From Aptenodytes patagonicus (Eukaryota; Chordata; Aves; Sphenisciformes; Spheniscidae): DNA of 64,000 nt. The translations under genes were made by a program, and so were the position numbers. Of the stretch, positions 11,251-52,312 are shown in pieces. The stretch is from contig NC_134974.1 in NCBI RefSeq assembly GCF_965638725.1, positions 2,688,143 through 2,752,142 on the forward strand, in the 5' to 3' direction. The notes under the pieces are model-generated. The model saw nothing but the letters and a program-made list of their open reading frames with translations, did no database searches and had not been told where the DNA came from. How positions within the stretch are numbered: the first letter of the stretch is position 1; each line of letters opens with the position of its first letter.

Positions 11251-11285
11251 CAGACAGGACAGACGGACGGACAGAGTGCTTGGTT

Positions 11286-29305: not shown

Positions 29306-32300
29306 CTAGGCCAAGATGTCGGAGGTGGAATCCCCACTACGGAAGTGGATGTCATGGGCAAGGCAAGGCCCATTGGGTTCCTTTCCAAAATCCACCAGGA
29401 AGTTCTTGTTCACGGTCAGGCCTCCTTTCTCAGTGTCCACGTCGATCTGCAGCATGACCGAGCCTTCCCTGCGAGGGGACAAGAGCGCAGCTATTACAGA
29501 CAAGCAAACCACGGTCCTGCTCAAGAGATCCTGCTCTTCAGCCTCCTGTTCCGTATCGAGGAAGAGGCTTTCTCCTGAACATCTTGTCTTCTACCGGGAG
29601 AAGGGAGCAGAGGCCCAGTTTCAGTAGCGGCATACACCAGCGCTCACATTTTTTTCCTGAATTCTCAATGGACGCGAGTAAACCGCTAGGCATGATGCGA
29701 TAGGCAGGCTGGAGCTTGCCTTTGTGTTGGAGGTCATCGTCTGCTTTGCTACATCAAAACATCTCTGGTGGATACACTGGGAGATGCTGTGGCAGAGACG
29801 TGGCCTGGCTCTCAGAGATCCACAGATGGATTCACTCCACCTTTCAGACTGAAACACTTGGGCTCTCCCAAGCAAAACCCTGGCACTGCCGCTCCGCACA
29901 GGCAGCAGCCGCACCTCGCCCAGCCAGAGACGCTTGTGAGTCAACTGCATGTGAAATTCAACGTGAGGAAGCTGCGGGGACGATGTTAGGAAAAGCTGTC
30001 CCTCTGCAATCACAAACGCGCCCTTGTAGCCCCCCAGATGAGGCGCCTTTCCCCTCTCTAACAGAGCGCCCATCCAAAGAGGCCCCTTTCCTTTCCTCCC
30101 ACATGTTTCTTACTTGACCACGGTCGGGTAGAACTGCTTGTCCCACGTGCTGTAGAAGGAGTTGGTGACGTACAGCCTCTTGCCATCCAGGCTGAGCTGC
30201 AGTTTACTAGGGCCGCCGTACACTCTCTTGCACTGAAGGCACAACAGACAGCAGTGGTGTTACTGGCTTCTTTCGTTCAGCAGCCAAGCACAAGCAGGGG
30301 CAGGGGAGCAGAGCAGAGCAGAGCAGAGCGGCTGCCTCCCCTTCTAACACAGGCAAGCTACCAGGTGCTGCAGACACACGGGCCACTGCAACGGGGCCCC
30401 ACCCCAGAAACCCTGGGCAGAGAACTAGCAGAGCAGAGCCCAAGTCCAAAGGACACCAGAGGGCAAAGAGGACGCAGAACTCACCTTGATCACCAAGGGC
30501 TCCGGCTGGCACTTCAGCTCTTCGTCTCTACACACAGTCACGGGTCCGCCTCTGAGGATACTGCCTCCCACAAACACCTGGAAGCCAGGCAGCGGGAGAC
30601 ATGTTGCCTTGTCATCCAACCACCACCAGATACCGCTAGGGAGCCCAACAGTGCAAGCCCTTCTGCTCCTGCCTTACCTGTCCCACCAGCCTGGGCTTGC
30701 AGGTTTTGGAGAGCTCGTATTGGCGGATGTCTCCGTGCAGCCAGTTGCTGAGATACAGGTACTTGTCATCCGTTGAGATGATGAGGTCGACTGTGAAGGC
30801 TAGGGCACAGAAACAAAGAGCTCTAGAGAAGGCAGCAGCAACAGAAAACGTGCCTTGCTTCGAGCCCCAGCTCGCATCTCTCCCTGCCATGCTGTACGTC
30901 GTGCCTCCAGCACAGGAGACCTGCCCAAGTGCACAGGCTCCAGCCGGGGCAGCAGTGTCTTCCTGGGGGTGTGCGCAGCCCCTCAGCCCCTCCGACAAGC
31001 CTTCCGCCGTGTTTACGCAGCAAGGCTTTGAGGGTCAGCGAGTGGCCTTTGCCAAGCTGCACAACACAAAGCTCCGGGAGGAAAAAGGAAACACCACCTC
31101 AGGGCACACGAACCTGGCATCTTGGGCATAATCCATCCCGTCACGTCCTTGGCCGGTATCCGAATCACCTCTTCTACTGCCCAGTTGTCTCTCTGTACAA
31201 GAAACACAGGCACCGCTCCAGGAGCGCTCCTGGCTGCTCAGGCAAGAGCGCTCCCCTGCCCTCACACACTTGCACAGCTAGGCAAAGCTGCCTGAGGAAG
31301 GCTACCACTGCACCCAGCTACTACGAGCAGACACCAGTAAGGGCAGCATCGTCTGATACCAACAGCGAGGCTGGGCCTCATCGCTCCAATTAATCCCCCA
31401 GTTGTTCAGCCAAGAAGTCCCAATTGGTCACGATGGGCTTTTACACTCAGTGGAAGAACAGACTCCTCTCATTCTAGCACACACGTCCAAAGCAGGGTCT
31501 GGATACCGCCCTCTCCACACGCCTCCTTCTTTCTCTCTGCTACCCCAAATTTCTTCTGCGCGTTTCTCCATCACCCTCTAGCTCACCATGGCCGGGTCTC
31601 CCGTGGCTGCTGGCAGAATACTTGCCTCGCACTTGTAGAAGCGGTAGACGATGCCACTCAGGGCACAGCTGACGTATCCCTCAGCAGCATCGGGGTTGTG
31701 GAGGAATTTAACACTCAGGGGCAAAGAGTCCTCCCCCAGGTCAAAGCACTGGGTGAGGGTGCGGCAGGACAAGTTCCACACGTTCAGGCGGCGCCCAAAG
31801 ACCCCTGAGGAAAAGGAAAACCAAGTCAGGAGAGAGGGGGCTACCCATGGAGACTCACCCCTCCCCAAATGCTCACAGACACCAACGGCCATGGCACCGT
31901 CCAGCCAGAATTAGCAGAGAAACTGCCGTGATTTAGGGAGCAGCGGGAAAAGACAGGGGCCAGCCTCTCTTAAGGACAGACGCTGCACGCCCTGTAGCAG
32001 TGCCTGTAAAATCGGCCGTTTGGGGAGAAATCTTCCTGTCCCCTCTCTCTGACCGCATCGACACCCTCCCACCACCTCGGGCAGTTCTGGCTCAGCGCTT
32101 GCATCCGTATTGCCTCACCTTTCTTCAAGTCGTCGGGATTAAATCCACGTCCCGCACGTTTTGGGACTAATCCAGCAGAGCTGATCAGAACATTGTGGCG
32201 TGGCTGGTACCAGAAGTCGTATCCAGTGGGGGGGGCCTCACACTCGTTTTCCCAGTTCCCCTTCAGCTCAAAGGTCTCTCCATCCAGCACAATAAATCCA

Positions 32301-35300
32301 CCTGTGATACAAAAAGGGGATGCACAACAAATCACATACTCCACGTCTAAATAGGTATCGTGCTTTGTGCATTAGCCTAGCTTAAACAGCCAAGATCTTC
32401 AAAATACTTGAGATACTTAGCTGCAAAGACTCTACAGCTCTTTGCTAGGTAAAGAGATGTGTTTATAGATTCCTATACGTGCTAAGCAGAAGTTTTGAGG
32501 ACCAAAAATGATCCCAACTTAATATTCACTTTAGTGAATATTTTAGTGAATATTTTAGTGAAAGGCCAAGTTACCTTTTCCATTGCCAGCTGGATCTCCC
32601 ATGTTGGCAATCAGAATATCACCATTAGGCAGGCTATGAACTACACTGAGGTATCCCTTGTTGCAGTTCCAGAAGACATCCACTGGCTCAATCATCTGAA
32701 AAAAGTTGACACACACACACACACACACACACTTCAGTGTCCGACTGCTCAGCTCATTTCACACCCCCTGGCAGAGCCTTTGGCCATCGCAGACTTCTGA
32801 AAATCTCTGACGGTTGCGGGAGCTTTCTTCCCAAGAACCCACACTTGCTAGGGCCCGCTCCTCCTTGGAGAGGAGCACAGAAGCTTCTGAGCTCCCCTCC
32901 GCACAGACAACAAGAATGCAGCAACACCTAACTCATAACAGCTTGTCTGTCCACCTCCCTATTTGGGTGGGGGCAGGCATGGGGTTTCCGTTCTCTGAAC
33001 GAAACACGTACAGAGAAAGGAACGCAATGATGAGCGGAGCCTTCCCTGGTCTGAAGAGGAGAGAGCTGAGAGGGAAACGTGACCCAGCTCTCTAAAATCA
33101 GGGTGGAAGAGAAGATGAAGAGAGAACCCTTCTTCCCTGGGTATTATTCCAGAAGCACCAGTTCCCAACTCCTTCCCAGAAACTTGTCTTTGAATCACCT
33201 CAGGCATACCTTACACAGCTTGGGAGCCCGGCACTGTGAACCCACATCCACCACGTAAATGCGGGAAGAAATCAAGCAGGGAAGAATCAGCTTGTTCCTT
33301 TTCGTTGTGATATTGTCAAAGCAGGTGCAGCCAGCGCTCCACCCCGAGGAATGCAGCTCGTCTTTGAGGTTGGGCATGGGCAGGCGGTGGATCACCTAGG
33401 CAGTCAAGGTAGAGTTAGGGTTCACTCAGGGAGGCACAGAGAAATGGGGACCCTAATGCTGGCAGATACTTCTGTCTTTGTAGCCTCCATTTGACTGTAG
33501 CTGGGACTGCCTCTAGAGACTTAGGGAGGAGAATGCTGCTCCTTGCACTGGCCACTGCTCTTTGTTAGGATACTGTGTGCAGCTGAGAAATGCGGAGATT
33601 CTTTCAAGAATTCCTCACCCCATGCCACTAAAATTCAGAAAATCATGTATGTGAAGAAATGATGATTATCAACTTGACAAAACTGGTGCATTGCTCTGCA
33701 AACTCCTCCTAAGAATGGAGTTCAAAATGTGTTAAAAACTTTCAGAAGTCTATATTGGCTTTAAAGTCCATTTTCTTCTAAGCTCTTGTAGTAATGGACT
33801 AATCAGGTCATATATACACCCCTGATGTAGATAACCTGTCTTTGCAGCCTTGAGAGACAGGTAAATGCCGATTTCCCATTTAGGATGACAGCAAGCAGGT
33901 TGGTACAGTGCACAACAGAACATCTCTGACACTGCAGCACAACAGAAACATGCTGAACTCTGCAAAAATGCTGGATACCCTAAACCACCTGGGTCACTAG
34001 AGGCCATTTTCCATGCTGAGCAGCCACTGAGAGGGTGATTCAGAGCATGTGCTCAAAAGCTCACTAGCAGCACCAAGATGCTCTGGAAGCGAGTCAGAGC
34101 CGACTTGTCCCAGGACACAAAAAAAAAGATGATTCAACTACAGCCAAGCACACAGGGGACAGTGGAAAAGAGTAAATGTCATGGATCTGACACACAGAGA
34201 CAGGCTAGTCATCAGCCCAGTAAAAACACAGTCAAGACACAGGTACCTGGGAATAATATGGAGATCTGGGGTTGAGATCGATGGTGGCCAGGAAGTCAGG
34301 CTGGTCGATGCATGTTTCCCTGTAGGTACAGGTCACGTAGGCAACCTCCTCTCTAGGAGCTGGGTATATAGAAAGCTTGTGTTAAAACATGCCATGAACC
34401 AGCCAGAAAGGAAAAGAAAAGCTTCAAGAGACTCTCAGATAGGACTGAACTTATTTTTCTGGATGCTACGACCTTCCTACAGGCAGTTGAGCTAGGTGAT
34501 CGTTGTAGGTCCCTTCCAGCTGGAACTATTCTATTCCATTCCATCCCATTCCATTCTATGCTATTCCATTCCATCCCATTCCATGCCATTCCATTCCATG
34601 CCATTCCATTCCATGCCATTCCATGCCATTCCATTCTATTCTATGCTATTCCATTCCATTCCATCCCATCCCATTCCATGCCATTCCATTCCATTCCTTT
34701 CCTCCTTGCTCGCTGGCAACTGTCCAACCCTGGCTCCATTACTGACCCAGAGGTAAGAAAACAAGAAAAGTGGATCTCCATATAGTTACAGTTTTCTCCC
34801 TTTGGGGGAAGGGACTCCGCATACACAGTTAATTAATGGTGGTCTCCACAAACACGGAGCTCCTTCCCAAGTACCCCCCACTCCAAAACACGCTCAAGAG
34901 GACTTGCCTTTCAAAACATCCGGGCAGATGGGGTAGTCGTAGCACTGAAGCCTGCATCTGTCTGATTTGAGAAGAAGAGAAGAATAAAATGAGAAACGTC
35001 CACATCTTTAAAAGGTGCCTGTGCAGAAGACTCTGTCCCACCCGATGGACCTTCTCCCACCCCAGCTGTCAACGGCCACCTCTGAGACCAGCAGCTACTT
35101 TTGTTATGGCAGTAAAAACTCTCAGATCCAGGAGAGGAATTCTCCCCTGAAGAAGAGACACTGAGGATATCACAGACCAAACCACTGCTCCGTTCCCTTT
35201 TGCATCCTCTGAGCCCCAGTGGAGGAGAGCGAGCCTACACTGAGAACCATGTCAGTATCGAAGGTCTAGCCTGGAAAATAACCCTGGTTTCTTGTCTCCC

Positions 35301-35635
35301 TGACGATTCCCCAGCAGAAGGGGAGGCTCCCCTCACCACGGATGCTGCAGCCACATGGAAGTAGCTTTTCAAGGCAAAAAGATCCCCCAGAAGCAGATCG
35401 GTAGCGAGACAAAGGAAACCTTTGGTACCAGTCAGACAAAACGCCAAACTTCGGTCCCACCTCTCCCCTTCCTGCAGCGCTGACAGAACAAACCTACCAG
35501 TCCCCAAGGGGGACTCGGTGTCAAGGTGGGATGCCTGCAGCCTCCAGGCAGTGGCTGGAGCCAGATCCAGGGTGGACCTACAAGCCTTGGAGCTGCTGTG
35601 GGCTGCGGGGAGGCTGCAGAGTATCTCTCACCCAT
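29306..35635 (-). CDS. Diverged SELENBP1-like protein, copy B
   Basis: Coding exons in gene order: 35632-35635, 34908-34961, 34247-34359, 33210-33395, 32575-32695, 32119-32301, 31626-31804, 31114-31192, 30678-30799, 30485-30577, 30114-30232, 29306-29468. Every exon from the second on equals the copy A exon in length. Total 1416 bases, 471 residues, all open. Family motifs kept: [75 protein letters not shown]. Replaced relative to human: Cys57 by Ser56, His74 by Ser73, CSSC (80-83) by GCTC, His137 by Ser136, Cys141 by Ser140, TEW (202-204) by SAG; the C-terminus is DILA instead of DIWI. His329 and Gly225, mutated in human methanethiol oxidase deficiency, are kept. Introns 2 and 7 use GC donors. 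Either a neofunctionalised enzyme or a binding protein; inference only. Confidence 0.9.
32709..32732. repeat. (AC)n microsatellite, long allele in copy B intron 4
   Basis: Twelve AC units just upstream of exon 5 in copy B. The same site in copy C (after 48953) has only about four units. Confidence 0.9.
34490..34703 (+). repeat. CR1 3' tail with expanded TTCCA-type satellite (copy B intron 2)
   Basis: The segment before 34527 (CTAGGTGATCGTTGTAGG, then GTCCCTTCCAGCTGG) resembles the 3' end of CR1 LINEs. It is followed by about 175 bases of CATTC/CATGC/CTATT pentamers. The array is open in several frames on both strands (Ile-Pro-Phe-His-Ser repeats, Trp-Asn-Gly-Met on the other), which is not coding. 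Confidence 0.85.
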
Positions 35636-35751
35636 GCTGAAGGCCGCCTGGTTCACTCTCCTCAGGAGCAGAGGTGCTGGAACTGGAGGTGCAGCTTGCT
35701 GTCTGCCTCGCCGGAGCGGGTTGTGTTGTGCCAAGGCTGCTCCGAGGGGGC

Positions 35752-35759
35752 CTTATATA
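35752..35759 (-). promoter_or_regulatory. TATA box of copy B
   Basis: TATATAAG on the gene strand, about 117 bases upstream of the copy B start codon, predicts a leader of roughly 90 nt. It is repeated exactly in unit 2, so each diverged gene has its own core promoter. Confidence 0.75.
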
Positions 35760-38700
35760 CAAGGCAAAGGGGTGGGGGGAGAAAGCAAGCTGCCAAGGGA
35801 GGAGCCATCGCTCCTAAGCGTTTGGGAGGTGCCAGACCAGCGCCGTGGCTTGTTTCCGCCTTGCTAACCACCAATCTAGAGGAAAAATCTGCTGGTCCAT
35901 GCAGGTCTTTTTCCTAAATGCAACCTCCCGTATCTGATCCTGGGGCTCTGCTGATTTCCACCAGGACTTCTTCGGCTCTGGAGGCCTCCACGTCCCAGCC
36001 GAGACACAAGCTAATTAAAGCCATCCCCCGTACCCAGGTTCCTGCCATACAAATGTGCAGTGGCTGCAAATTCCACACGAGGGATGAGAAGTCCAGCTAG
36101 ATAATTGGCCCCACCAGCAGCCTCCTGGAAATTACAAGGTTTGAACATACGGAGGCCACCAAAGGCACCTCTGAAATCTGGACCCTGACAGAAGGCACGT
36201 CTCTGTCTGAGGGCTGAGCTGAAGACATGGGCTCGCGGCGTCAGCTCAGCAAGCCAGGTCCAGAGGTGCCTCTACCCAGAAAGAAGACTTTCGGAGCTCC
36301 TAAGGACTGCAAACTGGGATAAGTGCCCACAAGAGGAGGGAGGGGGCTCCAACAGTACCCAAATCAGATGAGGAGCTGCCGACACCTCCCAAACAGCTAG
36401 AAAAGACATCAGGCTAGAAATGGGTGCCTCAGGAAATACAATCCGTGCCCTTGTTGATGCAGCACTTGCAAGGTCAAGACATGCCTGCTGCCTCTCACGT
36501 TTGTATCTCCACGTGGGAAGACAGTCAACCTGTGGAAAAGAGGAACCTTTAGGATTCGGGGCGACTCAGCACAGTGAAACACTGCCTGAGCAGCAGCTAC
36601 TTACTCTCCCCACCAGTCTGCCCAATGAACACCCAAAGCCCCATGGCAGGCACTAACACCGCAAAGTGCCTGGCACCGGTGCGGTCAAATTACACGCCAA
36701 CTAGACTAAACTGTCACAAAACACCCACGGGAACAGCAGAGATCTCTGTTAAAGGGAATGAGGCGTTGGATAGAAGAATTTTGGAAAGAAGGGTCCCCTC
36801 CCGAGATCACCACGGGCCTGGCTGCCACCAGCTGCCAAACTAAAGCAGGAAGAAAACACCAAGTGCCGTGGAACGTGAACAAGTATCGTATCTTGTGGAA
36901 GAACTCCTCCATCAGTGGGCAAATTACACGGGATAAGTAATTGCTCCATGTAGGAACGCAGAAACATCTGACAGCGCCATTAAAGAAGCCCTCGGGAGAT
37001 CTCTATCAGAAGAGAGGACAGCTTAGCCCATCTCACTAGGGCTGTAATTAAATGGCTTCCAGAACAGCACTTTAAACATATGACAGGCAAACACAGGAGC
37101 AGCCAAACACTTGGTCTTTTCTGTAAGCGAGGAGCATCAAACTGCTGCAATTGGAAGAACTCGTGATTTGTTTAGCAGAAATCCATCTTGGCAGTTTCAG
37201 TGCAAAGGGCAAAGGCAGCCGGGAGAGGGATCATTACCCACCACAGCCGGACACATCCATGCCACCAGTCGATGTATGGTTATTACTGACAAGCTGCATC
37301 CCAGGTACATCATGGTTCTCTATAAGGAAAGGAGAAGGTGTGAAAATAATATCATGGACGAAAGGAGAAAGCATGCAAAGAAATGGCTCAAAGCCTTATC
37401 TTACTGACTATGAAAGAAGTTGAGATCCTGGGCAAGAGTAACCACACGGAAAGAAATTCTATCCTCATATCAAATCAGACACGTAATGGAGGCACTTTTG
37501 GATGGCTTTTCCACAGCATTAGAGCACCCCATTTAACTGAGCACGGTATCCACCTAGGACCTGGAAGACCCCAACAGAGGAACCTTTCCTGGATGTCAGA
37601 AAAACTAGCAAGCACAAGGAGGAAAGGATGCAAAGGATGCCAGAAGAAAGAGGCATCAAAGAGCTATGCTGCACAGGGGTAGTTCAGCTGCATCAGGGCA
37701 AACTAGATTAAGGCACTGGACTCCACGTTGGACTTCAGGGGGTAAGTGTAATACCAGGTTTAATGTGTACAGGATGTCACCATCTCCAAATGGTGAGGAG
37801 ACTCAATGAAAGACCACTGCATATCCACACTGGACAAAACAAAGACTGACAGGCCAATGCCATAAGACCCAGACTGCTGAACGTTGGCTGTCTTTCCCCC
37901 CTCGTGGCTATATGAATGTTAAACACTTCTACTTCAGCTGTGTGAAGCCAGCAGCACTCTGAAGGTGAAGGACACAGTGATGCCTCCCAGGGCTGTGCAG
38001 GGCTTTCTAAGCATAGCAGGATATTGCTAGATTTCTCCTTCTGGATTAAGAACAGTCATGGCCCTTTCACAGTAATCTCAAAGGAGTTTATTTTACAGAC
38101 ATGTGCTTCTGAACAGGACTTGTGGCACTGCTTTTGCAGGAGTTTGCACATCCCAGTCTTCACCAGCAAACTCCTACTGCAGAGAGATGTGGAAGTAGCT
38201 GGTATAACCTTTTCTGTAAAACGCAGCACAGAGACTTTCAGTATTGCTTGCCTGGGACAGCTTTCAGCCTGGGTCTGCCTGTTGCAGCACCTGTAGCCTG
38301 TCAACGCTCTGGTTCATCACACCTCAACCCACACACGTTCACAACATGCTATAAGTTTGAGGACCACACTTGTGCGAGTGGAAGTAAAGAATCTGTCTCC
38401 ATCTCCAGTTCTCAGAGGCAAACCCTTTCATGTCTCCTAAGGGCAGCAAGCTTGTCCTGGGGGCACAAAGAGGTGCCAGCGTTGGGAACCAACCTGGCAT
38501 CCGATCATCACCAGGCAGATTTTGAGAGCTGACACCTCGAGAATCAGAAGGAAGCCCTCAGTCCAGGAGCAGCTCCATAGCCGGAGCTAGCTGTCCTCCT
38601 CAGAGCAACTCAAAACAGACTTTCCCTCTTCTCCCCTTGACTGCACGGAGCTCACCACTGCTCTCCCATGCTGCTCTGAGCTGGGCAGGAACGGCCCATC

Positions 38701-40563
38701 TTTCTCCAATCAAAACCAAAAGAGAGGTTCAGGCACTGTACCTGACGTGCTGCCGTCCTTGTTTGCCCGGCTGGCAGGAAGCACAACCAGGCCCAAGGAC
38801 GCGCGAGAAGCCCCTGCTCCATCAGAAGCAATTTCAGGTGCTCAGCTGATGCTTCTTTGCATGCTTCTGCTGTCATGATGTGCATGTCTCACTGCATCTT
38901 CTTCTTGCACCTGCACGCCTGCTAATTAAAAAGTTCATTAGTCTTCCGCTCATTAACAAAGTTTGCTGGTCATCCTCTTTGGCTTTCCTTGGTGACGTCT
39001 TTGGCATCCCTCACAAAACCAAGCTGTGGGGTGTAGAGTTTTCTAATTAAAACTGATAGTAGGAAGGATAAGAGCAGGCTCAGCAACACCAACAAGCAAG
39101 CAAGCGATGGTTAGCGGAGAACTCAATCAGCGTGGTCTGCTCTTGGCCTAAGTAAAGCTCCCTGTGGCAGGCAGAGATGGGAAGCCATGACATGGAAAAG
39201 CAATCGGGGCTTCGCTGGACAGCCCACACTGAGGTGGCAACTACTCCCCTCCTCCCGACCACCTCTTCCAACCCTGATAGGGAAGAGCATGCTATAATTT
39301 GGATAATGGGCAAGACTAGGTGATGCAATCTGGTGCAGACCGGCACCGCACACTAAATGTGCTGGGAGAAGACCTTGCTTCACCAAGAACACCAAGTCTG
39401 CTCTGAACACCCAAGGATGAACCCCCCTGACCATGGGAGCAGTCTCCAACCTTCCCCCGCTTCTCCAGGGACGACGTTCTCTCCCTTCCCACCTCACCCT
39501 GCCATAAAACCCTGGAGGTGTCCCAGGCTAAGTGCTGCTCATCGTCTTGCATTCTTAAATCCCCCTTTCCCATACAAGCAGTCGATGGCAGGTGGCACAG
39601 CTCACTGCACATTGGCGGTGGCAAGACACAAACGGCTCTGGGGGCGGCAGAGGAGAAGAGCCCACCGGAGGCACGTGAGACAGAAAGACAGAGTGCTCAA
39701 GACTTTGGGACAAGTGGTAATGCAAACAGCCAGAAGGGCGGGGGCACATTTAAGACAAAAGGCAAATGTTGTTAGAAGCAGGCAGACTACGCAAAGCTCG
39801 GATCCACCACCCTGGCTCTCTTGATCACCTCACCGAGCAGGGACAAACCAAATGTCCCAGGGCTACAGGACTCACACCTGGTACACGCGGTGCCCTTCGG
39901 CACATCACTTCAGCAACAGTACCATGTACAGGCTACAAGGTTTGCTGGAGGGATCATCAGCGTAGCACAGCTACACTTCTTCTCCCTCAAGGCACCTCTC
40001 TGCCTTTTTTCCACTACTGTTTCAGCCTCCCCTTCCCCTCCAAAGGAGCGGTTTGCTGTTGGAGCAGGAGTCACAGGGGAGGGGGCAGAAAGGTCTGGCC
40101 AGAAGCACGGCAGCAGTGGGATCACCCCTCCCCACTACAGCCCACAGCTACGACCGGACAAACCCATCCGAAACCCACATCCTTAGGTTGTGATTTCAGG
40201 CACCATGTAATGAGACGTGACTCCGGGCTGCCACTGAAGGGCCCTGCCATGTGCAGCCACAGGGAGACGGACGGTGAGCCACTTTTTTGGCAGCGCAGTT
40301 TTCTGCCGGATCAGCTCCTTCAACCGACTCCTCCCACAACCGCACGATCGCTCCATCTGGCACAAGAGGAGTGGCAGCACCACGCAGCTGGGGAGGACGG
40401 ACGAGCAGGACCTGCTTTTTCTCCTCTTCCATGCCTCTGCCTGAAGACAGGCACTAGCACTTTTCCTTAAAAGTCCCTACGAACACTGCAAATCAGACTC
40501 CAAGCTTGTAACAAATGAAAACAAGAACGGCTGACTTTTCTCCACTGATGGAGAAGGAAATTG
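35760..40563. other. Unit 1 intergenic sequence upstream of copy B
   Basis: There is no SELENBP1 exon or other recognisable gene in these 4.8 kb. About 37045-38545 is poorly alignable with unit 2 (53600-54088), and 39401-40230 is absent from unit 2. Frames of up to 234 codons (39766-40470) are broken or missing in the other unit and show no family similarity. Confidence 0.6.
39401..40230. other. 830-base segment present only in unit 1
   Basis: Unit 2 reads AAGTCTG directly into CCACTGAAGG at 54942, whereas unit 1 has 830 bases between the same two words. The trinucleotide CTG stands at both edges in unit 1, as expected for a microhomology deletion in unit 2. I do not recognise a mobile element in it. 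Confidence 0.8.
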
Positions 40564-42463
40564 TTACAGAGAAATTGTCTGAGCAGCCAGGGATCAGGTT
40601 AGGAATGGTAAAGCCCTGATAGAATTAAATCTGGCCAGGGACGTCAAGGGCAACAAGAAAAGATTCTATAGGTACGTCAGGGATAAAAGGAAGATGAGGG
40701 AAAATGTGGGCCCTCTCCAGAACGAAACGGGAGACCTGGTTACCCGGGACATGGAGAAGGCGGAGGTACTCAAGGACTTTTTTGCCTCGGTCTTCACCAG
40801 CAAGTGCTCGAGCCTCACCGCCCAAGCCGCAGAAGGCAAAGGCGGGGACTGGGAGGATGAAGAGCCGCCCACTGTGGGAGAACATCAGGTTCAAGACCAC
40901 CTAAGATCACCTGAAGGTGCACAAGTCCATGGGACCTGATGAGATCCATCCGCAGGTCCTGAAGGAACTGGTGGATGAAGTTGCTAAGCCACTATCCATC
41001 GTATTTGAGAAGTCGTGGCAGTCCAGTGAAGTTCCCACTGACTGGAAAAGGGGCAAGATAACCCCCATTTTTAAAAAGGGAAAAAAGGAAGACCCAGGGA
41101 ACCACAGGCCAGTCAGTCTCACCTCTGTGCCTGGGAAGATCATGGAACAGATCCTCCTGGAAGCTATGCTAAGGCACATGGAGGACAGGGAGGTGATTCG
41201 AGACAGCCAGCATGGCTTCACCAAGGGCAAGTCCTGCCTGACCAACCTAGTGGCCTTCTATGATGGAGTGACTACAGCAGTGGACACGGGAAGGCCTACA
41301 GGTGTCGCCTGTCTGGACCTCTGTAAGGCCTTTGACACGGTCCCCCACAACATCCTTCTCTCTAAACTGGAGAGGTATGGATTTGATGGGTGGACTGTCC
41401 GGTGGGTGCGGAATTGGTTAGATGGTCGCATCCAGAGGGTAGTGGTCAACGGCTCAATGTCCAGATGGAGATTGGTGACGAGCGGCATCCCGCAGGGGTC
41501 CATATTGGGACCAGTACTGTTTAATATCTTCATCAGTGACATAGACAGTGGGATCGAGTGCACCCTCAGCAAGTTTGCAGATGACACCAAGCTGAGTAGT
41601 GCGGTCGACACACCAGGACAGGATGCCATCCAGAGGGACCTGGACAAGCTTGAGAAGTGGGCCCGTGTGAACCTCATGAGGTTCAACAAGGCCAAGTGCA
41701 GGGTCCTGCACCTGGGTCAGGGCAACCCCCGGTATCAAGAGAGGCTGGGGGATGAAGGGGTGGAGAGCAGCCCTGCCGAGAAGGACTTGGGGGTACTGGT
41801 GGGTGAAAAGCTGGACATGAGCCAGCAATGTGCGCTTGCAGCCCAGAAGGCCAACCGTATCCTGGGCTGCATCCAAAGCAGCGTGGCCAGCAGGGCGAGG
41901 GAGGGGATTCTGCCCCTCTGCTCTGCTCTGGTGAGACCCCCCCTGGGGCACTGCGTCCAGCTCTGGAGCCCTCAGCATAAGAAAGACACAGACCTGTGGG
42001 AGCGGGTCCAGAAGAGGGCCACAAAAATGATCAGGGGGATGGAACACGTCTGCTATGGAGAAAGGCTGAGAGAGTTGGGGTTGTTCAGCCTAGAGGAGAG
42101 AAGGCTTCGGGGAGACCTTCTTGCAGCCTGTCAGTACTTAAAGGGGGCTTCTAAAAAAGATGGCAGCAAACTTTTTAGCAGGGCCTGTTGCAACAGGACA
42201 AGGGGGAATGGCTTTAAACTAAAGGGGGGGTCGATTTAGACTAGATCTAAGGAAGAAATTTTTTACGCTGAGGGTGGTGAAATACTGGCACAGGTTGCCC
42301 AGAGAGGTGGTGGATGCCCCATCCCTGGAAACATTCCAGGTCAGGTTGGACGGGGCTCTGAGCGACCTGATCTAGTTGAAGATGTCCCTGCCCACGGCAG
42401 GGGGGTTGGACTAGATGACCTTTAGAGGTCCCTTCCAACCCAAATTATTCTATGATTCTATGA
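40564..42463 (+). mobile_element. CR1 LINE, 5'-truncated, young
   Basis: The 3' 1.9 kb of a chicken-repeat-1 non-LTR retrotransposon. The first frame (about 40590-40905) reads [20 protein letters not shown] and on to DHL. A one-base insertion near 40905 shifts into a second frame (from about 40908) that carries the reverse transcriptase for about 440 codons: [77 protein letters not shown] and the catalytic FADDT at 41574-41588. A further shift in a G run near 42228 precedes the C-terminal HRLPREVVDAPSLE. It ends in two ATTCTATG-type units at 42447-42463. The frame is otherwise clean, so the element is recent. The matching place in unit 2 (55270) is empty. Confidence 0.95.
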
Positions 42464-42547
42464 AACGCAAACCAGGAATGCATATGCTGAGCAGTTTAAC
42501 TAAACGTTTCAGGTTGCACTCCAAGGACTCATTTACACTTCTCTGTA

Positions 42548-43245
42548 CGAGTTTCTGGTCAGTCTCTATTCAGCCTACTATGAATGTGAAGGCAGAACAT
42601 GTATCAGTGGTTTGTTCATCTATTACAGAAGACAGTATTTTTATCTATGGTAAAACAACCTAATAAATACCCTTTTCCTCCCTCTGCAATAGCCATGATT
42701 CCTCTGCAAAATACTTTAAGATACAGCCAGAAAGTTACATTTGCATCCTCATCTCCCTGGCAACGTCCCTTAAAGAAAACAAAGGTCACATTCACACTCT
42801 GTGCAATTTCCACTTGTTCAGGTTCTAAACGCTGAAATGAGCAAATGCTACAAAAGCACAGCAAAAACCATTCAGGAGGGTTACGAGATCTCAATATTCA
42901 TCTGCTGCATCCTGCAGACTAGAGGGGAGGAGATCCAATGTGTGGGTCTTCTGCTGCTAAGAGTTGAATATAGCCTGGGATTATTTCTTGCCTCTGCTGC
43001 TATCTGGAAGGGGAGGGAAAATTGAAGGTCCATCTGAAAAGAAGACCCAGGGCAGAATGGAGCACTCAAAACAGCTGCACTGTCAACATGGTTTTTCAGG
43101 ACACTAGTTTCCAGTCCTATAGCTACAAGCCTCATCTCAATTTGGTGCATTAATGAGTAGTGCAGCCCAACGATGCCCTCAGCTACTCATGAAACGCCAT
43201 CCTCCCACCAAGCTTCTACCCCAGAACAAAGCTCTTTTGGGGAGC
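42548..43245. other. Spacer between the two duplicated units
   Basis: About 700 bases after unit 1 homology ends and before unit 2 begins. A clean tandem duplication would have no such spacer. No gene, repeat family or SELENBP1 exon is recognised in it. Confidence 0.7.
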
Positions 43246-45063
43246 TGTTGGAAACTGCGAAGGACTTGACAGATGCTGGCACCAGGGAGAAGCCTATCTT
43301 CCAAATAACCACTAGAGGGAACAGACGAAGCATCCAACTTCAGCCAGCCCAATTCACCGCCTCCCCAGGTGAGGCACATTCAGCCGCTGCAGATGCACCA
43401 CGTTCCACGTTCCTCAGGATAACTCATGCACGAGGGTGAGGAAAGGCCCACGCTCCCCGAAACATGGGAGTCAGGACCCAAAGACCTGGGAACAGGCCTT
43501 GGAGGGGATGAAGGAGTTTGCTCGTACCAGCAGAAATACGTCCACATCCATCCAACTTGGGCAGAGCATGGCCTGATGGTGGAACGAGGAGCTGGGTCAC
43601 CCCTGCCGCGTTGTCTGTTGCTCTTCGTGGCTCAGCTGCAGCTCAAAGCCCGGGCTGAGTCCTCGCCTTGCCGTGTGACCACCTGCAGGTCAGAGAGGGT
43701 GCTCAGTTGAGAGCGTAAGGGACAGCAGACTCTCTGATCAAACCCGTAAACACGGCCATGAGGTAAGGGAGCTCTTCCCTCCACTGATGTGGATGGTGCC
43801 CGGCCCCATCACGAGGAGGGGTTTCCAGGGCAGATTCAGCTCAGCTACCTCCAGCCATCTGGACCGCATGCTGGCATGGGGATGTCTGCTGGCCAGACTC
43901 TCCCTCCAGCCAGCGGAGAGGAGGAGGCACCTCTAGTGAGGTACGTGCCTTGTAGGGTCTGAAGGTAGGTGAGATGAGGCTCATTCAAAAGCCACCGCAA
44001 CAGCAGGGACGTCCCCTGAGAAGGCCCTCAAACAAGGCAAAAGCTGGAGGATCAGAAGGGGCTGTCACACGCAAGTGATCGTGACGCTGAACAGCAGCAC
44101 CCCAGGGTGCTCAAGAGAGCTGGAGCAACATGCGTGCCCGTGAGCAGGGTGAGGAAGTAAATGAAGTTGTGTTCCTCCAAGGTAAATCCATAAAGGGCTA
44201 AAACTTAGAAGGATCCTCTTTATATCCTAATTTTTGCAGCCTCCAAACTCATTACGGTTTTGGCTGCAAATTGTACCCTCGTGAAGATGCTCAAGGCAAA
44301 CGGGACTAATGGGACGATGTGTGGGTGTGCAGCGGGGTTTTGGAGGCCGGTGGTTGCCCTCCTGTGTAGCAAACAGGCTTACATTGGGCGAGTGGGATTT
44401 GGCATCCTACGCAGCACGTGATAAGCAGGAGAACAACCTACAACTCCAGCGAGTACATCTTGCGAAAGAGGACAGCCTATGGAGAATTCTGAAGGGACTA
44501 AGGACATTTTGCCAACACCGTATTAACTGTATGCAGAGTACTTTGGGTGAAAACCCTGACTTGACTCTGCCTCAACTGTGTTAAGACTACGCCGTCCATG
44601 GGAACCGATCAAGCTGAAACCGATATTCTCACCAGCAGCAAGCAAACCGCTTAACAAACGCACGGGATTGCACTGGAGCGTCTACTAAGTGTGTTCTTGC
44701 AGCCCTTCACGTATCTTAAAGTAAGCCCTACTAAAACCAAATGGTTGGTTTGGGGGATGACAACACTACATTGCTTTGACAAGGTACGTTCGTTTGGGGC
44801 AGAAAAAGAACAAATGGTTGCCGCGCTTCCCTATAAAAGCTGTGCCTGCAAGAATGCACACAAAAAAAAGAACGAGCAAAGACAATTTCTACCAGAAACT
44901 TCCCAGAAGACTAACAGGCGCTCTGGCACAATCAGTGTCCTGTCTTAGGGGTTTTCAAAACCCTGATCTTATCACTGACCCCTGCTGGCATTTGTTTTCC
45001 CCTGAAATAAATCTGAAAGGCTTCAGTAAGACACGTGAAGATCTAGCTGATGCAAAGAACAAT
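43246..45063. other. Unit 2 sequence downstream of copy C
   Basis: Near-identical counterpart of 26817-28635. No gene recognised. Confidence 0.6.
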
Positions 45064-45069
45064 TTTATT
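45064..45069 (-). terminator. Polyadenylation signal of copy C
   Basis: AATAAA on the gene strand, 665 bases past the stop, identical in context to that of copy B. Confidence 0.8.
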
Positions 45070-45733
45070 CTTGTTTAAAGCAGAACATAAGAGCAAACCA
45101 GTGTCGGGAAACAGGCACTTCTTTTCAAAATAAAGCACTTCATACTCCTTCAGCTGTGACGCGTACCGACCCAAGCACGTGAGAAGGGAGCCAAGAGGGC
45201 TCTCGTGCCAGGGGAAGACTATCCAGGAACGACCCGGCTGAAGAACAGTAACTCAGGCGAACTGGGCACTTCACTTTCTTTTGCCTTAGTTTTCAAGGGT
45301 GAACAAGCGCTGAATCGTAACTGAGAGTTCAACACCTTGCTACCGGCCCCGGTACTAGACAGCAATAGCTAACAGGCCGGGGACATCAAGGCAGGTGTCC
45401 GACAGGCCTGTAGCAATGAAGCGAGGCACGGTGGGTATGCAGGTATCTGCCCAAAGGCACTGTGCGTACTGCACATCTCTGCATTTGAGCAACTGTCCTG
45501 GGCTCTGCTCTGCGAACCACGCCCAGGGGTTGCTTTGCACTGAAAACATGCCATGTGTCCACTGGTCTGCCTGAACCAAACCCTCGCAAAAAGGCAGAGC
45601 TTCCGTAGCTCAGGTTAGCAGAAATCAAGACTCCAGCAATGAACGGGGACCCCCAAACCCAATTACCCTACGCTCTTTCTTAATGGCTGCACTACAGAAG
45701 AGAGAGAGAAGAAGGGAGTCTTCCACATGGCGC

Positions 45734-48700
45734 CTAGGCCAAGATGTCGGAGGTGGAATCCCCACTACGGAAGTGGATGTCATGGGCAAGGCAAGGCCCA
45801 TTGGGTTCCTTTCCAAAATCCACCAGGAAGTTCTTGTTCACGGTCAGGCCTCCTTTCTCAGTGTCCACGTCGATCTGCAGCATGACCGAGCCTTCCCTGC
45901 GAGGGGACAAGAGCGCAGCTATTACAGACAAGCAAACCACGGTCCTGCTCAAGAGATCCTGCTCTTCAGCCTCCTGTTCCGTATCGAGGAAGAGGCTTTC
46001 TCCTGAACATCTTGTCTTCTACCGGGAGAAGGGAGCAGAGGCCCAGTTTCAGTAGCGGCATACACCAGCGCTCACATTTTTTTCCTGAATTCTCAATGGA
46101 CGCGAGTAAACCGCTAGGCATGATGCGATAGGCAGGCTGGAGCTTGCCTTTGTGTTGGAGGTCATCGTCTGCTTTGCTACATCAAAACATCTCTGGTGGA
46201 TACACTGGGAGATGCTGTGGCAGAGACGTGGCCTGGCTCTCAGAGATCCACAGATGGATTCACTCCACCTTTCAGACTGAAACACTTGGGCTCTCCCAAG
46301 CAAAACCCTGGCACTGCCGCTCCGCACAGGCAGCAGCCGCACCTCGCCCAGCCAGAGACGCTTGTGAGTCAACTGCATGTGAAATTCAACGTGAGGAAGC
46401 TGCGGGGACGATGTTAGGAAAAGCTGTCCCTCTGCAATCACAAACGCGTCCTTGTAGCCCCCCAGATGAGGCGCCTTTCCCCTCTCTAACAGAGCGCCCA
46501 TCCAAAGAGGCCCCTTTCCTTTCCTCCCACATGTTTCTTACTTGACCACGGTCGGGTAGAACTGCTTGTCCCACGTGCTGTAGAAGGAGTTGGTGACGTA
46601 CAGCCTCTTGCCATCCAGGCTGAGCTGCAGTTTACTAGGGCCGCCGTACACTCTCTTGCACTGAAGGCACAACAGACAGCAGTGGTGTTACTGGCTTCTT
46701 TCGTTCAGCAGCCAAGCACAAGCAGGGGCAGGGGAGCAGAGCAGAGCAGAGCAGAGCGGCTGCCTCCCCTTCTAACACAGGCAAGCTACCAGGTGCTGCA
46801 GACACACGGGCCACTGCAACGGGGCCCCACCCCAGAAACCCTGGGCAGAGAACTAGCAGAGCAGAGCCCAAGTCCAAAGGACACCAGAGGGCAAAGAGGA
46901 CGCAGAACTCACCTTGATCACCAAGGGCTCCGGCTGGCACTTCAGCTCTTCGTCTCTACACACAGTCACGGGTCCGCCTCTGAGGATACTGCCTCCCACA
47001 AACACCTGGAAGCCAGGCAGCGGGAGACATGTTGCCTTGTCATCCAACCACCACCAGATACCGCTAGGGAGCCCAACAGTGCAAGCCCTTCTGCTCCTGC
47101 CTTACCTGTCCCACCAGCCTGGGCTTGCAGGTTTTGGAGAGCTCGTATTGGCGGATGTCTCCGTGCAGCCAGTTGCTGAGATACAGGTACTTGTCATCCG
47201 TTGAGATGATGAGGTCGACTGTGAAGGCTAGGGCACAGAAACAAAGAGCTCTAGAGAAGGCAGCAGCAACAGAAAACGTGCCTTGCTTCGAGCCCCAGCT
47301 CGCATCTCTCCCTGCCATGCTGTACGTCGTGCCTCCAGCACAGGAGACCTGCCCAAGTGCACAGGCTCCAGCCGGGGCAGCAGTGTCTTCCTGGGGGTGT
47401 GCGCAGCCCCTCAGCCCCTCCGACAAGCCTTCCGCCGTGTTTACGCAGCAAGGCTTTGAGGGTCAGCGAGTGGCCTTTGCCAAGCTGCACAACACAAAGC
47501 TCCGGGAGGAAAAAGGAAACACCACCTCAGGGCACACGAACCTGGCATCTTGGGCATAATCCATCCCGTCACGTCCTTGGCCGGTATCCGAATCACCTCT
47601 TCTACTGCCCAGTTGTCTCTCTGTACAAGAAACACAGGCACCGCTCCAGGAGCGCTCCTGGCTGCTCAGGCAAGAGCGCTCCCCTGCCCTCACACACTTG
47701 CACAGCTAGGCAAAGCTGCCTGAGGAAGGCTACCACTGCACCCAGCTACTACGAGCAGACACCAGTAAGGGCAGCATCGTCTGATACCAACAGCGAGGCT
47801 GGGCATCATCGCTCCAATTAATCCCCCAGTTGTTCAGCCAAGAAGTCCCAATTGGTCACGATGGGCTTTTACACTCAGTGGAAGAACAGACTCCTCTCAT
47901 TCTAGCACACACGTCCAAAGCAGGGTCTGGATACCGCCCTCTCCACACGCCTCCTTCTTTCTCTCTGCTACCCCAAATTTCTTCTGCGCGTTTCTCCATC
48001 ACCCTCTAGCTCACCATGGCCGGGTCTCCCGTGGCTGCTGGCAGAATACTTGCCTCGCACTTGTAGAAGCGGTAGACGATGCCACTCAGGGCACAGCTGA
48101 CGTATCCCTCAGCAGCATCGGGGTTGTGGAGGAATTTAACACTCAGGGGCAAAGAGTCCTCCCCCAGGTCAAAGCACTGGGTGAGGGTGCGGCAGGACAA
48201 GTTCCACACGTTCAGGCGGCGCCCAAAGACCCCTGAGGAAAAGGAAAACCAAGTCAGGAGAGAGGGGGCTACCCATGGAGACTCACCCCTCCCCAAATGC
48301 TCACAGACACCAACGGCCATGGTACCGTCCAGCCAGAATTAGCAGAGAGACTGCCGTGATTTAGGGAGCAGCGGGAAAAGACAGGGGCCAGCCTCTCTTA
48401 AGGACAGACGCTGCACGCCCTGTAGCAGTGCCTGTAAAATCGGCCGTTTGGGGAGAAATCTTCCTGTCCCCTCTCTCTGACCGCATCGACACCCTCCCAC
48501 CACCTCGGGCAGTTCTGGCTCAGCGCTTGCATCCGTATTGCCTCACCTTTCTTCAAGTCGTCGGGATTAAATCCACGTCCCGCACGTTTTGGGACTAATC
48601 CGGCAGAGCTGATCAGAACATTGTGGCGTGGCTGGTACCAGAAGTCGTATCCAGTGGGGGGGGCCTCACACTCGTTTTCCCAGTTCCCCTTCAGCTCAAA

Positions 48701-51700
48701 GGTCTCTCCATCCAGCACAATAAATCCACCTGTGATACAAAAAGGGGATGCACAACAAATCACATACTCCACTTCCAAACCAGTGAGATTGTTCATGGAG
48801 TTATTGCATGGCAAAGTACCTTTTCCATTGCCAGCTGGATCTCCCATGTTGGCAATCAGAATATCACCATTGGGCAAGCTGCGAGGTACACTGAGGTATC
48901 CCTTGTTGCACTTCCAGAAGACATCCACTGGATCAATCATCTGAAAAATGTTGACACACACTTCAGTGTCCGACTGCTCAGCTCATTTCACACCCCCTGG
49001 CAGAGCCTTTGGCCATCGCAGACTTCTGAAAATCTCTGATGGTTGCGGGAGCTTTCTTCCCAAGAACCCACACTTGCTAGGGCCTGCTCCTCCTTGGAGG
49101 GGAGCACAGAAGCTTCTGAGCTCCCCTCTGCACAGACAACAAGAATGCAGCAACACCTAACTCATAACAGCTTGTCTGTCCACCTCCCTATTTGGGTGGG
49201 GGCAGGCATGGGGTTTCCGTTCTCTGAACGAAACACGTACAGAGAAAGGAACGCAATGATGAGCGGAGCCTTCCCTGGTCTGAAGAGGAGAGAGCCGAGA
49301 GGGAAACGTGACCCAGCTCTCTAAAATCAGGGTGGAAGAGAAGATGAAGAGAGAACCCTTCTTCCCTGGGTATTATTCCAGAAGCACCAGTTCCCAACTC
49401 CTTCCCAGAAACTTGTCTTTGAATCACCTCAGGCATACCTTACACAGCTTGGGAGCCCGGCACTGTGAACCCACATCCACCACGTAAATGCGGGAAGAAA
49501 TCAAGCAGGGAAGAATCAGCTTGTTCCTTTTCGTTGTGATATTGTCAAAGCAGGTGCAGCCAGCGCTCCACCCCGAGGAATGCAGCTCGTCTTTGAGGTT
49601 GGGCATGGGCAGGCGGTGGATCACCTAGGCAGTCAAGGTAGAGTTAGGGTTCACTCAGGGAGGCACAGAGAAATGGGGACCCTAATGCTGGCAGATACTT
49701 CTGTCTTTGTAGCCTCCATTTGACTGTAGCTGGGACTGCCTCTAGAGACTTAGGGAGGAGAATGCTGCTCCTTGCACTGGCCACTGCTCTTTGTTAGGAT
49801 ACTGTGTGCAGCTGAGAAATGCGGAGATTCTTTCAAGAATTCCTCACCCCATGCCACTAAAATTCAGAAAATCATGTATGTGAAGAAATGATGATTATCA
49901 ACTTGACAAAACTGGTGCATTGCTCTGCAAACTCCTCCTAAGAATGGAGTTCAAAATGTGTTAAAAACTTTCAGAAGTCTATATTGGCTTTAAAGTCCAT
50001 TTTCTTCTAAGCTCTTGTAGTAATGGACTAATCAGGTCATATATACACCCCTGATGTAGATAACCTGTCTTTGCAGCCTTGAGAGACAGGTAAATGCCGA
50101 TTTCCCATTTAGGATGACAGCAGGCAGGTTGGTACAGTGCACAACAGAACATCTCTGACACTGCAGCACAACAGAAACATGCTGAACTCTGCAAAAATGC
50201 TGGATACCCTAAACCACCTGGGTCACTAGAGGCCATTTTCCATGCTGAGCAGCCACTGAGAGGGTGATTCAGAGCATGTGCTCAAAAGCTCACTAGCAGC
50301 ACCAAGATGCTCTGGAAGCGAGTTGGGAAGTGAGTCACAGCCGACTTGTCCCCAGAACACAGAGATGGAGATGATTCAACTAGAGCCAGGCATACTGAGG
50401 ACAGTGGAAAGAGCAGGAAGGTGAGATTTCCTAGCAGACAACATCCCTATCTCGCGCATAACACCAGTGGAGAAGCAAGAAGTAAACCTGCCATGACAAA
50501 ACTTACAAGGTGTTTCCCAGACAGGTCTTGGCAGGACATGAAGAGGCAGGAGGCAAGAGTCAAGCCAGGGTGGATGAGACAGAAAGATGCAGGAAGACAA
50601 GAAGGTGCAAGGCATAAACAGAAAGCCTGCATGACAGAGTGGCTATCAAGCAATCTGATTTTCCCCAGCAAAAAAGAGTAAATGTCCTGAATCTGGGGCA
50701 CTATGAAGCATAGAACCAGCAGCTAGTCATCAGCCCAGTAAAAACACAGTCAAGACACAGGTACCTGGGAATAATATGGAGATCTGGGGTTGAGATCGAT
50801 GGTGGCCAGGAAGTCAGGCTGGTCGATGCATGTTTCCCTGTAGGTACAGGTCACGTAGGCAACCTCCTCTCTAGGAGCTGGGTATATAGAAAGCTTGTGT
50901 TAAAACATGCCATGAACCAGCCAGAAAGGAAAAGAAAAGCTTCAAGAGACTCTCAGATAGGACTGAACTTATTTTTCTGGATGCTACGACCTTCCTACAG
51001 GCAGTTGAGCTAGGTGATCGTTGTAGGTCCCTTCCAGCTGGAACTATTCTATTCCATTCCATCCCATTCCATTCTATGCTATTCCATTCCATCCCATTCC
51101 ATTCCATTCCATGCCATTCCATCCCATTCCATTCTATTCCATCCCATCCCATTCTATTCCATCCCATCCCATGCCATTCCATCCCATCTCATCCCATTCC
51201 ATGCCATTCCATGCCATTCCATTCTATTCTATGCTATTCCATTCTATTCCTTTCCTCCTTGCTCGCTGGCAACTGTCCAACCCTGGCTCCATTACTGACC
51301 CAGAGGTAAGAAAACAAGAAAAGTGGATCTCCATATAGTTACAGTTTTCTCCCTTTGGGGGAAGGGACTCCGCATACACAGTTAATTAATGGTGGTCTCC
51401 ACAAACACGGAGCTCCTTCCCAAGTACCCCCCACTCCAAAACACGCTCAAGAGGACTTGCCTTTCAAAACATCCGGGCAGATGGGGTAGTCGTAGCACTG
51501 AAGCCTGCATCTGTCTGATTTGAGAAGAAGAGAAGAATAAAATGAGAAACGTCCACATCTTTAAAAGGTGCCTGTGCAGAAGACTCTGTCCCACCCGATG
51601 GACCTTCTCCCACCCCAGCTGTCAACGGCCACCTCTGAGACCAGCAGCTACTTTTGTTATGGCAGTAAAAACTCTCAGATCCAGGAGAGGAATTCTCCCC

Positions 51701-52188
51701 TGAAGAAGAGACACTGAGGATATCACAGACCAAACCACTGCTCCGTTCCCTTTTGCATCCTCTGAGCCCCAGTGGAGGAGAGCGAGCCTACACTGAGAAC
51801 CATGTCAGTATCGAAGGTCTAGCCTGGAAAATAACCCTGGTTTCTTGTCTCCCTGACGATTCCCCAGCAGAAGGGGAGGCTCCCCTCACCACGGATGCTG
51901 CAGCCACATGGAAGCAGCTTTTCAAGGCAAAAAGATCCCCCAGAAGCAGATCGGTAGCGAGACAAAGGAAACCTTTGGTACCAGTCAGACAAAACGCCAA
52001 ACTTCGGTCCCACCTCTCCCCTTCCTGCAGCGCTGACAGAACAAACCTACCAGTCCCCAAGGGGGACTCGGTGTCAAGGTGGGATGCCTGCAGCCTCCAG
52101 GCAGTGGCTGGAGCCAGATCCAGGGTGGACCTACAAGCCTTGGAGCTGCTGTGGGCTGCGGGGAGGCTGCAGAGTATCTCTCACCCAT
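45734..52188 (-). CDS. Diverged SELENBP1-like protein, copy C
   Basis: Coding exons in gene order: 52185-52188, 51461-51514, 50765-50877, 49439-49624, 48820-48940, 48547-48729, 48054-48232, 47542-47620, 47106-47227, 46913-47005, 46542-46660, 45734-45896. Total 1416 bases, 471 residues, open throughout. It shares every replaced residue of copy B (Ser at the Cys57 position, GCTC for CSSC, SAG for TEW, DILA end) and both GC donors (introns 2 and 7). The amino-acid differences I noticed from B cluster in exon 5: [20 protein letters not shown] against [20 protein letters not shown]. One of these replaces the His at human position 140 by Arg. The only exonic difference I noted elsewhere (exon 6, GCT to GCC) is silent. 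It has its own TATA box and polyadenylation signal, so it should be transcribed independently. Confidence 0.9.
51008..51256 (+). repeat. CR1 3' tail with expanded TTCCA-type satellite (copy C intron 2)
   Basis: Counterpart of 34490-34703. The CR1-derived start is the same, but the pentamer array is longer (about 212 against 177 bases) and differs inside, with more CCATCCCATC units. The arrays have therefore changed since the duplication. Confidence 0.85.
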
Positions 52189-52304: not shown

Positions 52305-52312
52305 CTTATATA
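52305..52312 (-). promoter_or_regulatory. TATA box of copy C
   Basis: TATATAAG on the gene strand, same position relative to the start codon as in copy B. Confidence 0.75.

What the first reader, a model, noticed from the sequence alone, without database searches (positions are those of the whole stretch)
29306..52188. Diverged SELENBP1 subtype lacking the selenium-binding cysteine and other core residues
Copies B and C replace Cys57 (human) by Ser, His74 by Ser, CSSC 80-83 by GCTC (CxxC becomes CxC), His137 by Ser, Cys141 by Ser and Thr-Glu-Trp 202-204 by Ser-Ala-Gly, and alter the conserved YPGGD and DIWI C-terminus. Yet the frame is fully open, the propeller motifs and His329 persist, and promoters and poly(A) signals are present. 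That pattern suggests a retained protein with changed chemistry, not decay.
Basis: partly seen in the sequence, partly recalled or inferred. Interest (0 to 1): 0.82.

Follow-up and report, generated by a model that had tools for sequence, protein, structure and literature searches.

The report
Cysteine-rich, metal-site-less bird SELENBP1 paralog
Birds carry an extra copy of the sulfur-metabolism gene SELENBP1 that has lost half of its copper-site residues and gained about a dozen cysteines, yet has stayed intact, which suggests it was rebuilt for a new job, possibly in feathers or skin.

Summary
In detail: copies B and C are complete 12-exon, 471-codon genes, nearly identical to each other, with every listed substitution. 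The subtype is not peculiar to this window: it forms one strongly supported clade whose named members are all birds, kiwi, emu and tinamous included. Omega on the B branch is 0.38 (A/D 0.08); omega = 1 is rejected, p = 0.002. 'Selenium-binding cysteine' is the wrong emphasis: published C57S changes neither selenium binding nor activity. What matters is the copper pocket: of six residues each needed in human SELENBP1, His74 (0 of 59 rows), His137 (0 of 59) and Glu252 (0 of 60) are gone from the B type, and His140 from copy C and 26 of 60 rows. Best reading: a retained, catalytically disabled, cysteine-enriched beta-propeller, possibly co-opted for cornified skin or feather like chicken CRUOX, whose embryonic-skin keratin cluster includes a methanethiol-oxidase-like gene, LOC425662. 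That LOC425662 is the B type was not shown here.

The parts
29306..35635 (-). Copy B, complete gene: 12 coding exons (35635-35632, 34961-34908, 34359-34247, 33395-33210, 32695-32575, 32301-32119, 31804-31626, 31192-31114, 30799-30678, 30577-30485, 30232-30114, 29468-29306), 471 aa
   Evidence: homology to SELENBP1, splice sites, no internal stop; PF05694 581 bits
45734..52188 (-). Copy C, complete gene: 12 coding exons (52188-52185, 51514-51461, 50877-50765, 49624-49439, 48940-48820, 48729-48547, 48232-48054, 47620-47542, 47227-47106, 47005-46913, 46660-46542, 45896-45734), 471 aa
   Evidence: 9 nt differences from B over 1416 nt
35754..35759 (-). TATATA box-like element, 124 nt before the ATG of B
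52307..52312 (-). TATATA box-like element, 124 nt before the ATG of C; the 600 nt upstream of the ATG are identical in B and C
28636..28641 (-). AATAAA, 665 nt after the stop of B
45064..45069 (-). AATAAA, 665 nt after the stop of C
33210..33395 (-). Exon 4 of B: H73 kept, H74S, N78S, C80G, S81C (new Cys), C83 kept; also C113 and C119 (new)
32575..32695 (-). Exon 5 of B: H137S, H140 kept in B (Arg in C), C141S
32119..32301 (-). Exon 6 of B: D189 kept, TEW 202-204 -> SAG, new Cys181
31626..31804 (-).
29306..29468 (-). Exon 12 of B: new Cys454, YPGGDC -> FRSGDS (Cys466 lost), C-terminus DILA
17733..25645 (-). Copy A, human-like paralog: 12 exons, 492 aa, all six copper-pocket residues kept
58635..63051 (-). 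Copy D, human-like paralog, exons 6-12 only (gene runs off the window), 311 aa, no stop
26811..40563 (.). Stretch around B that matches, with gaps, the stretch around C (43239-55275); 40564-43238 has no counterpart, so the far edge of the duplicated unit is not fixed

Best explanation
Copies B and C are near-identical duplicates of one SELENBP1 paralog (B type) found in palaeognath and neognath birds, so it very probably arose before the living birds diverged. SHOWN by sequence: the protein scaffold is kept under purifying selection, three of the six residues that make human SELENBP1 a copper thiol oxidase are absent from all B-type rows that read there, a fourth varies, and 13 cysteines are new and mostly conserved. 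INFERRED: the protein no longer oxidises methanethiol by the SELENBP1 mechanism and is a pseudoenzyme. INFERRED with less certainty: the added cysteines let it form disulfides with itself or with corneous proteins, or act as a thiol redox buffer, in cornifying epidermis or feather, much as the cysteine-enriched uricase CRUOX was co-opted in reptilian skin.
Against: No assay was run; loss of activity rests on human and worm mutants. His73 (58 of 60) and Asp189 (57 of 62) are mostly kept, and some changed positions do have a preferred new residue: 252 is Ser or Thr in 54 of 60, 204 is Gly in 62 of 62, so a rebuilt site is not excluded; human mutants also still bound some copper. Whether LOC425662 is B, A or D was not shown, and another feather paper lists LOC425662 under 'regulation of transcription' (PMC4594745, one passage), which fits poorly. 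A chick egg-tooth proteome paper and a review of skin-appendage proteins do not mention the protein in their main text. The loop placement of the new cysteines is weak: 10 of 13 lie outside strands and helices against 215 of 442 residues (p = 0.04), but 3 of those 10 are in low-confidence segments; without them 7 of 10, p = 0.15. Four of the 13 are absent or rare in palaeognaths (81: 0 of 6; 280: 0 of 6; 341: 1 of 5; 454: 2 of 7). Four of 60 database B rows are named LOW QUALITY PROTEIN, so some lineages may be decaying. No anseriform B-type row was listed (capped lists of cluster representatives). Related rows are not independent, so the Cys p-values are too small. Mutation bias towards Cys codons was not tested.
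Confidence: 0.52

Rival explanations
1. An active enzyme with changed chemistry: the pocket was rebuilt, with His73 and Asp189 kept and new residues accepting another metal or substrate.
For: His73 kept in 58 of 60 and Asp189 in 57 of 62 rows; position 252 is Ser/Thr in 54 of 60, 203 Ala in 53 of 62, 204 Gly in 62 of 62; fold intact; 7 formerly invariant sites switched to a new fixed residue. Human single mutants kept some copper.
Against: Positions 74 (C 24, S 23, A 9, others 3) and 137 (N 21, A 17, S 16, T 3, C 2) have no single new residue and 140 is split 34 His to 26 Arg, which is unlike a new conserved metal site.
Confidence: 0.2
2. A regulatory pseudoenzyme that binds the active A or D paralogs or other partners in gut or liver, with cysteines serving redox sensing rather than cornification.
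For: A keeps the full site and D the part inside the window; SELENBP1 is abundant in chicken caecum (PMC8614574, passages; paralog not stated there). Positions 74 and 137 drift while 120 of 178 invariant sites are kept.
Against: No interaction evidence. Does not by itself explain a dozen new cysteines.
Confidence: 0.2
3. A relaxed, decaying gene whose open frame is chance or recent.
For: B-branch omega is almost five times that of A/D; B distances between comparable bird groups are 1.1 to 4.5 times those of A or D; 4 of 60 database B rows are named LOW QUALITY.
Against: omega = 1 rejected, p = 0.002; 0 of 500 neutral runs stop-free at each of three divergences; strong rate variation among sites in B (gamma shape 0.73); presence in palaeognaths and many neognath lineages; new cysteines conserved.
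Confidence: 0.05
4. Only for the number of copies: B and C are two haplotypes of one locus placed in tandem by the assembler, not a real duplication.
For: 99.6% identity over 5541 bp; no reads were available.
Against: Around exon 5 and intron 5 they differ far more (29 mismatches in 401 aligned bases, 199 bases of B absent from C, B 32211-32810), and B has sequence without good counterpart near 37.1-38.5, 39.4-40.2 and from 40.56 kb.
Confidence: 0.25

Closest known systems
SELENBP1 / SBP56 family (PF05694), human copper-dependent methanethiol oxidase
   Same: Fold, exon lengths of the sister copy A, His73, Asp189, Gly225 and His329 mostly kept, locus beside the human-like copies A and D
   Different: His74, His137, Glu252, Cys80, Glu203 and Trp204 lost, Cys141 nearly so (2 of 60 rows keep it); His140 variable; 13 new cysteines
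Cysteine-rich urate oxidase CRUOX of chicken (Mori et al. 2023, PMC10517255; abstract, sections 6 and 11, passages)
   Same: An old oxidase enriched in cysteine in the sauropsid line with weakened activity; a methanethiol-oxidase-like gene is in its skin co-expression cluster
   Different: CRUOX was enriched on the reptile stem and is still active; B type is a duplicate known here only from birds, with a dismantled metal site, and its tissue is not shown
Bacterial cluster 1 methanethiol oxidases (PMC10936201, passages)
   Same: Same family
   Different: The catalytic cysteine proposed there, in GGDCS(T), corresponds to human Cys466, which is Cys in only 12 of 60 B rows
Mouse Selenbp2 (PMC11989624, abstract start in a listing: 'highly homologous')
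   Same: A lineage-specific SELENBP1 duplicate
   Different: Recalled as nearly identical to Selenbp1; not compared here

Membership tests
SBP56 / SELENBP protein family (PF05694) | Profile match above curated cut-off | tested here: met
   581.2 bits, cut-off 34, residues 11-469
SBP56 / SELENBP protein family (PF05694) | Beta-propeller fold as in 2ece | tested here: met
Functional copper thiol/methanethiol oxidase | Six copper-pocket residues H73, H74, H137, H140, D189, E252, each needed for activity | tested here: not met
   B has 3 of 6 (H73, H140, D189), C has 2 of 6; requirement from PMC10362175
Functional copper thiol/methanethiol oxidase | Copper content and methanethiol oxidation | not testable with these tools
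   Needs protein
Functional copper thiol/methanethiol oxidase | NCBIfam MthilOxMtoX equivalog cut-off (650 bits) | tested here: inconclusive
   90.9 bits, but the library serves prokaryote annotation and A, D or human were not run as control
Selenium binding by SELENBP1 | N-terminal Cys5-x-x-Cys8 | tested here: not met
   B type keeps the first Cys (26 of 28 rows), lacks Cys8 (1 of 29), has Cys at 9 (24 of 29); the N-terminal alignment is gappy; binding itself not testable
Cysteine-enriched skin enzyme of the CRUOX kind | Large rise in cysteine against relatives | tested here: met
   15-29 in 42 rows against 5-12 in 62
Cysteine-enriched skin enzyme of the CRUOX kind | Expression with beta-keratins in skin or feather | tested here: inconclusive
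   LOC425662 reported in the keratin cluster, paralog identity not shown
Cysteine-enriched skin enzyme of the CRUOX kind | Disulfide-mediated aggregation | not testable with these tools
   Needs protein
Processed or unprocessed pseudogene | Stops, frameshifts, broken splice sites, omega near 1 | tested here: not met

The most novel reading that the evidence does not exclude
The B type is a second ancient oxidase, after CRUOX, that birds turned into a cysteine-rich cross-linkable or redox protein of feather and cornified skin: copper catalysis was dropped and cysteines were added, perhaps in steps, so that two former H2O2-generating oxidases of sulfur and purine metabolism now act beside beta-keratins.
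Probability: 0.4. Interest if true: 0.82.

Novelty: new variant of a known kind. Interest (0 to 1): 0.63.

Why it matters
A SELENBP1 paralog spread through birds and named 'methanethiol oxidase-like' in many public records probably has no methanethiol oxidase activity, so the name may mislead. It offers a natural experiment that removes much of the copper pocket from a conserved propeller while the scaffold is kept. Mori et al. report cysteine enrichment as unique to uricase in their scan of single-copy orthologs; a duplicated gene like this one would fall outside such a scan, so enzyme co-option into cornified tissue by cysteine gain may be more common than thought, and can now be tested in feather.

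Tried and rejected
Decay: disfavoured by omega, exon lengths and retention in both main bird lineages. Loss of selenium binding through Cys57: rejected on the published C57S result. A penguin- or window-only oddity: rejected; P0057, from Aptenodytes forsteri, is 100% identical over 311 aa and the nearest row to D is a penguin, so the window is probably from a penguin. A clear order of events (first cysteines before, four more after the palaeognath-neognath split) was my first reading and is withdrawn: inside the B clade the tree puts owls first and palaeognaths with galliforms, against the usual bird tree and often with weak support, so later gain in neognaths and loss in palaeognaths are not told apart. 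dN/dS within the B clade: not done, only the window's DNA was available. The D-type model was not searched or superposed.

Literature (10 searches) in the held PMC library: 'methanethiol oxidase-like' 0 papers; SELENBP1 with 'pseudoenzyme' 0; SELENBP1 with 'paralog' and 'chicken' 2, and with 'birds' and 'duplication' 4, none about this by their titles. One search was badly formed (any 2 of 6 terms) and is uninformative. No claim of absence from print goes beyond these.

Rows dropped: the tree used 76 of the 125 sequences at hand; the Cys counts used 39 or 42 of 62 B rows by two completeness limits and 62 of 63 others (winD is partial); the rate test used 41 and 62 rows. B rows were sorted by residue 203, plus four assigned by name in the script (P0043, P0052, P0057, P0090); so the tally at residue 203 is circular, the others are not. 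One search had three wrong exon edges and one (D exon 9), corrected. Protein searches list only the best 120 of 4274, 4344 and 510 matches.

Full report
WHAT IS IN THE WINDOW. Four copies of SELENBP1 lie head to tail on the minus strand: A 25645-17733, B 35635-29306, C 52188-45734, and D, of which exons 6-12 (63051-58635) are inside. B and C have 12 exons, 471 codons and no internal stop. Splice acceptors are all AG; donors are GT save GC after exon 2 in A, B and C and after exon 7 in B and C. Lengths of exons 2-12 are the same in A, B and C. B and C lie in a tandem repeat, 99.6% identical over 5541 bp, and differ at 9 of 1416 coding bases, 8 of them in exon 5. All substitutions in the finding are present.

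IT IS SPREAD THROUGH BIRDS. A protein search with B returned bird proteins of the same type at 69-93% identity (and a partial penguin one at 100%), many labelled 'methanethiol oxidase-like' or 'SBP1 oxidase', from gulls, parrots, owls, hummingbirds, passerines, turkey and quail to kiwi, emu and tinamous. With the full-length query the listed non-avian hits are 64% identical or less, and those in the table keep the human-like site at most of the positions shown. In a 76-row tree the B type is one clade of 36 rows (100/100), with a stem of 0.48 changes per site; bird A and D form other groups, but how the three join each other and the crocodile, turtle and lizard genes is unresolved. Presence in palaeognaths and neognaths puts the origin before living birds; whether it predates the crocodile split is open. 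No anseriform B-type row was listed, in capped lists of cluster representatives.

IT IS UNDER PURIFYING SELECTION. With the window's own DNA (311 codons of A, B and D), omega is 0.38 on the B branch and 0.08 on A and D; one omega for all is rejected (p = 7e-7) and omega 1 for B is rejected (p = 0.002). This is a three-sequence fit and averages the stem with later time. Between comparable bird groups, B distances are 1.1 to 4.5 times those of A or D. Rates vary strongly among sites within B (gamma shape 0.73). Simulated neutral drift from A left 0 of 500 runs free of stops at each of three divergences. Against this, 4 of 60 database B rows are named LOW QUALITY PROTEIN.

WHAT WAS LOST. Philipp et al. 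2023 (PMC10362175; passages) found by mutagenesis that H73, H74, H137, H140, D189 and E252 are each needed for human activity, that C57S has no effect on selenium binding or activity, and that C5/C8 carry most selenium. Among B rows that read there, His74 is kept in 0 of 59, His137 in 0 of 59, Glu252 in 0 of 60 and His140 in 34 of 60 (26 have Arg); His73 is kept in 58 of 60 and Asp189 in 57 of 62. In this window B has His140 and C Arg. Cys80 and Glu203 are lost throughout, Trp204 is Gly in 62 of 62, Cys141 is kept in 2 of 60. Positions 74 and 137 have no single new residue, which fits release from constraint; 252 is Ser or Thr in 54 of 60 and 204 always Gly, which could also fit a rebuilt site. 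The archaeal structure 2ece keeps HH, HTVHC, YDF, SEW and LELR. Of 178 sites at least 97% invariant in non-B rows, 120 are kept in B. The copper residues rank 11, 12, 26, 62, 70 and 115 of 441 among sites that sped up in B (p = 0.0004; 0.006 among slow sites).

WHAT WAS GAINED. Cys counts in the core (human 22-462) are 15-29 in 42 B rows and 5-12 in 62 others. Cys is the most frequent new residue: 13 of 90 consensus replacements, p = 3e-8 against a 2% background; each is held in 79-98% of B rows. B and C carry all 13. Nine are found in most palaeognath rows read at the site (two of the nine in only 2 rows); 81 and 280 are absent, 341 and 454 rare there, and the tree does not settle whether these four were gained later or lost. 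Ten of 13 lie outside strands and helices of the predicted gull model against 215 of 442 residues (p = 0.04), but only 7 of 10 in confidently predicted parts (p = 0.15), so exposure is a guess. His fell from 14.0 to 8.5 on average. The rows are related, so the p-values are too small.

TRANSCRIPTION. P0052 (source tag lgn, which I recall as assembled sequencing runs) reads 359 residues, exons 5-12, on a contig of 1448 nt; in the window the same exons span 3.4 kb with seven introns, so it looks like spliced RNA from another animal with the B type. Its first residues resemble the end of intron 4 read through. This is indirect.

VERDICT.

Noticed in passing
window 32211-33110 (B) and 48639-49339 (C): Exon 5 and intron 5 of B and C differ far more than the rest of the unit. 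B reads VH and C PR at human 139-140; both variants are spread over bird lineages (of 62 B rows VH 8, PR 21, other 31, unread 2), as if two old exon-5 types persist through gene conversion.
   Followed up: partly
window 25645-25579: Copy A has lost the ATG that B and C use at the end of exon 1; an upstream in-frame ATG gives an N-terminal extension of about 20 residues (MQAGSS...) and a duck protein, P0059, has a similar one (MQAASP...).
   Followed up: partly
window 2730-3869 and about 11300-13900: Reading frames that I recognise from memory as PI4KB and RFX5, both on the minus strand, so the array seems to lie at the conserved SELENBP1 locus.
   Followed up: no
window about 40564-42490: A CR1-like repeat (recognised from memory) lies beyond the B unit and has no match beyond the C unit.
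   Followed up: no
window 34526-34825 and 51079-51378: Degenerate GGAAT-like short tandem repeat in intron 2 of B and C.
   Followed up: no
window 31625 and 48053; 34907, 51460 and 24105: GC donors (gcaagt) after exon 7 in B and C and after exon 2 in A, B and C.
   Followed up: no
window 10001-12000: G+C of 79%, the highest of the 2-kb steps in the window.
   Followed up: no
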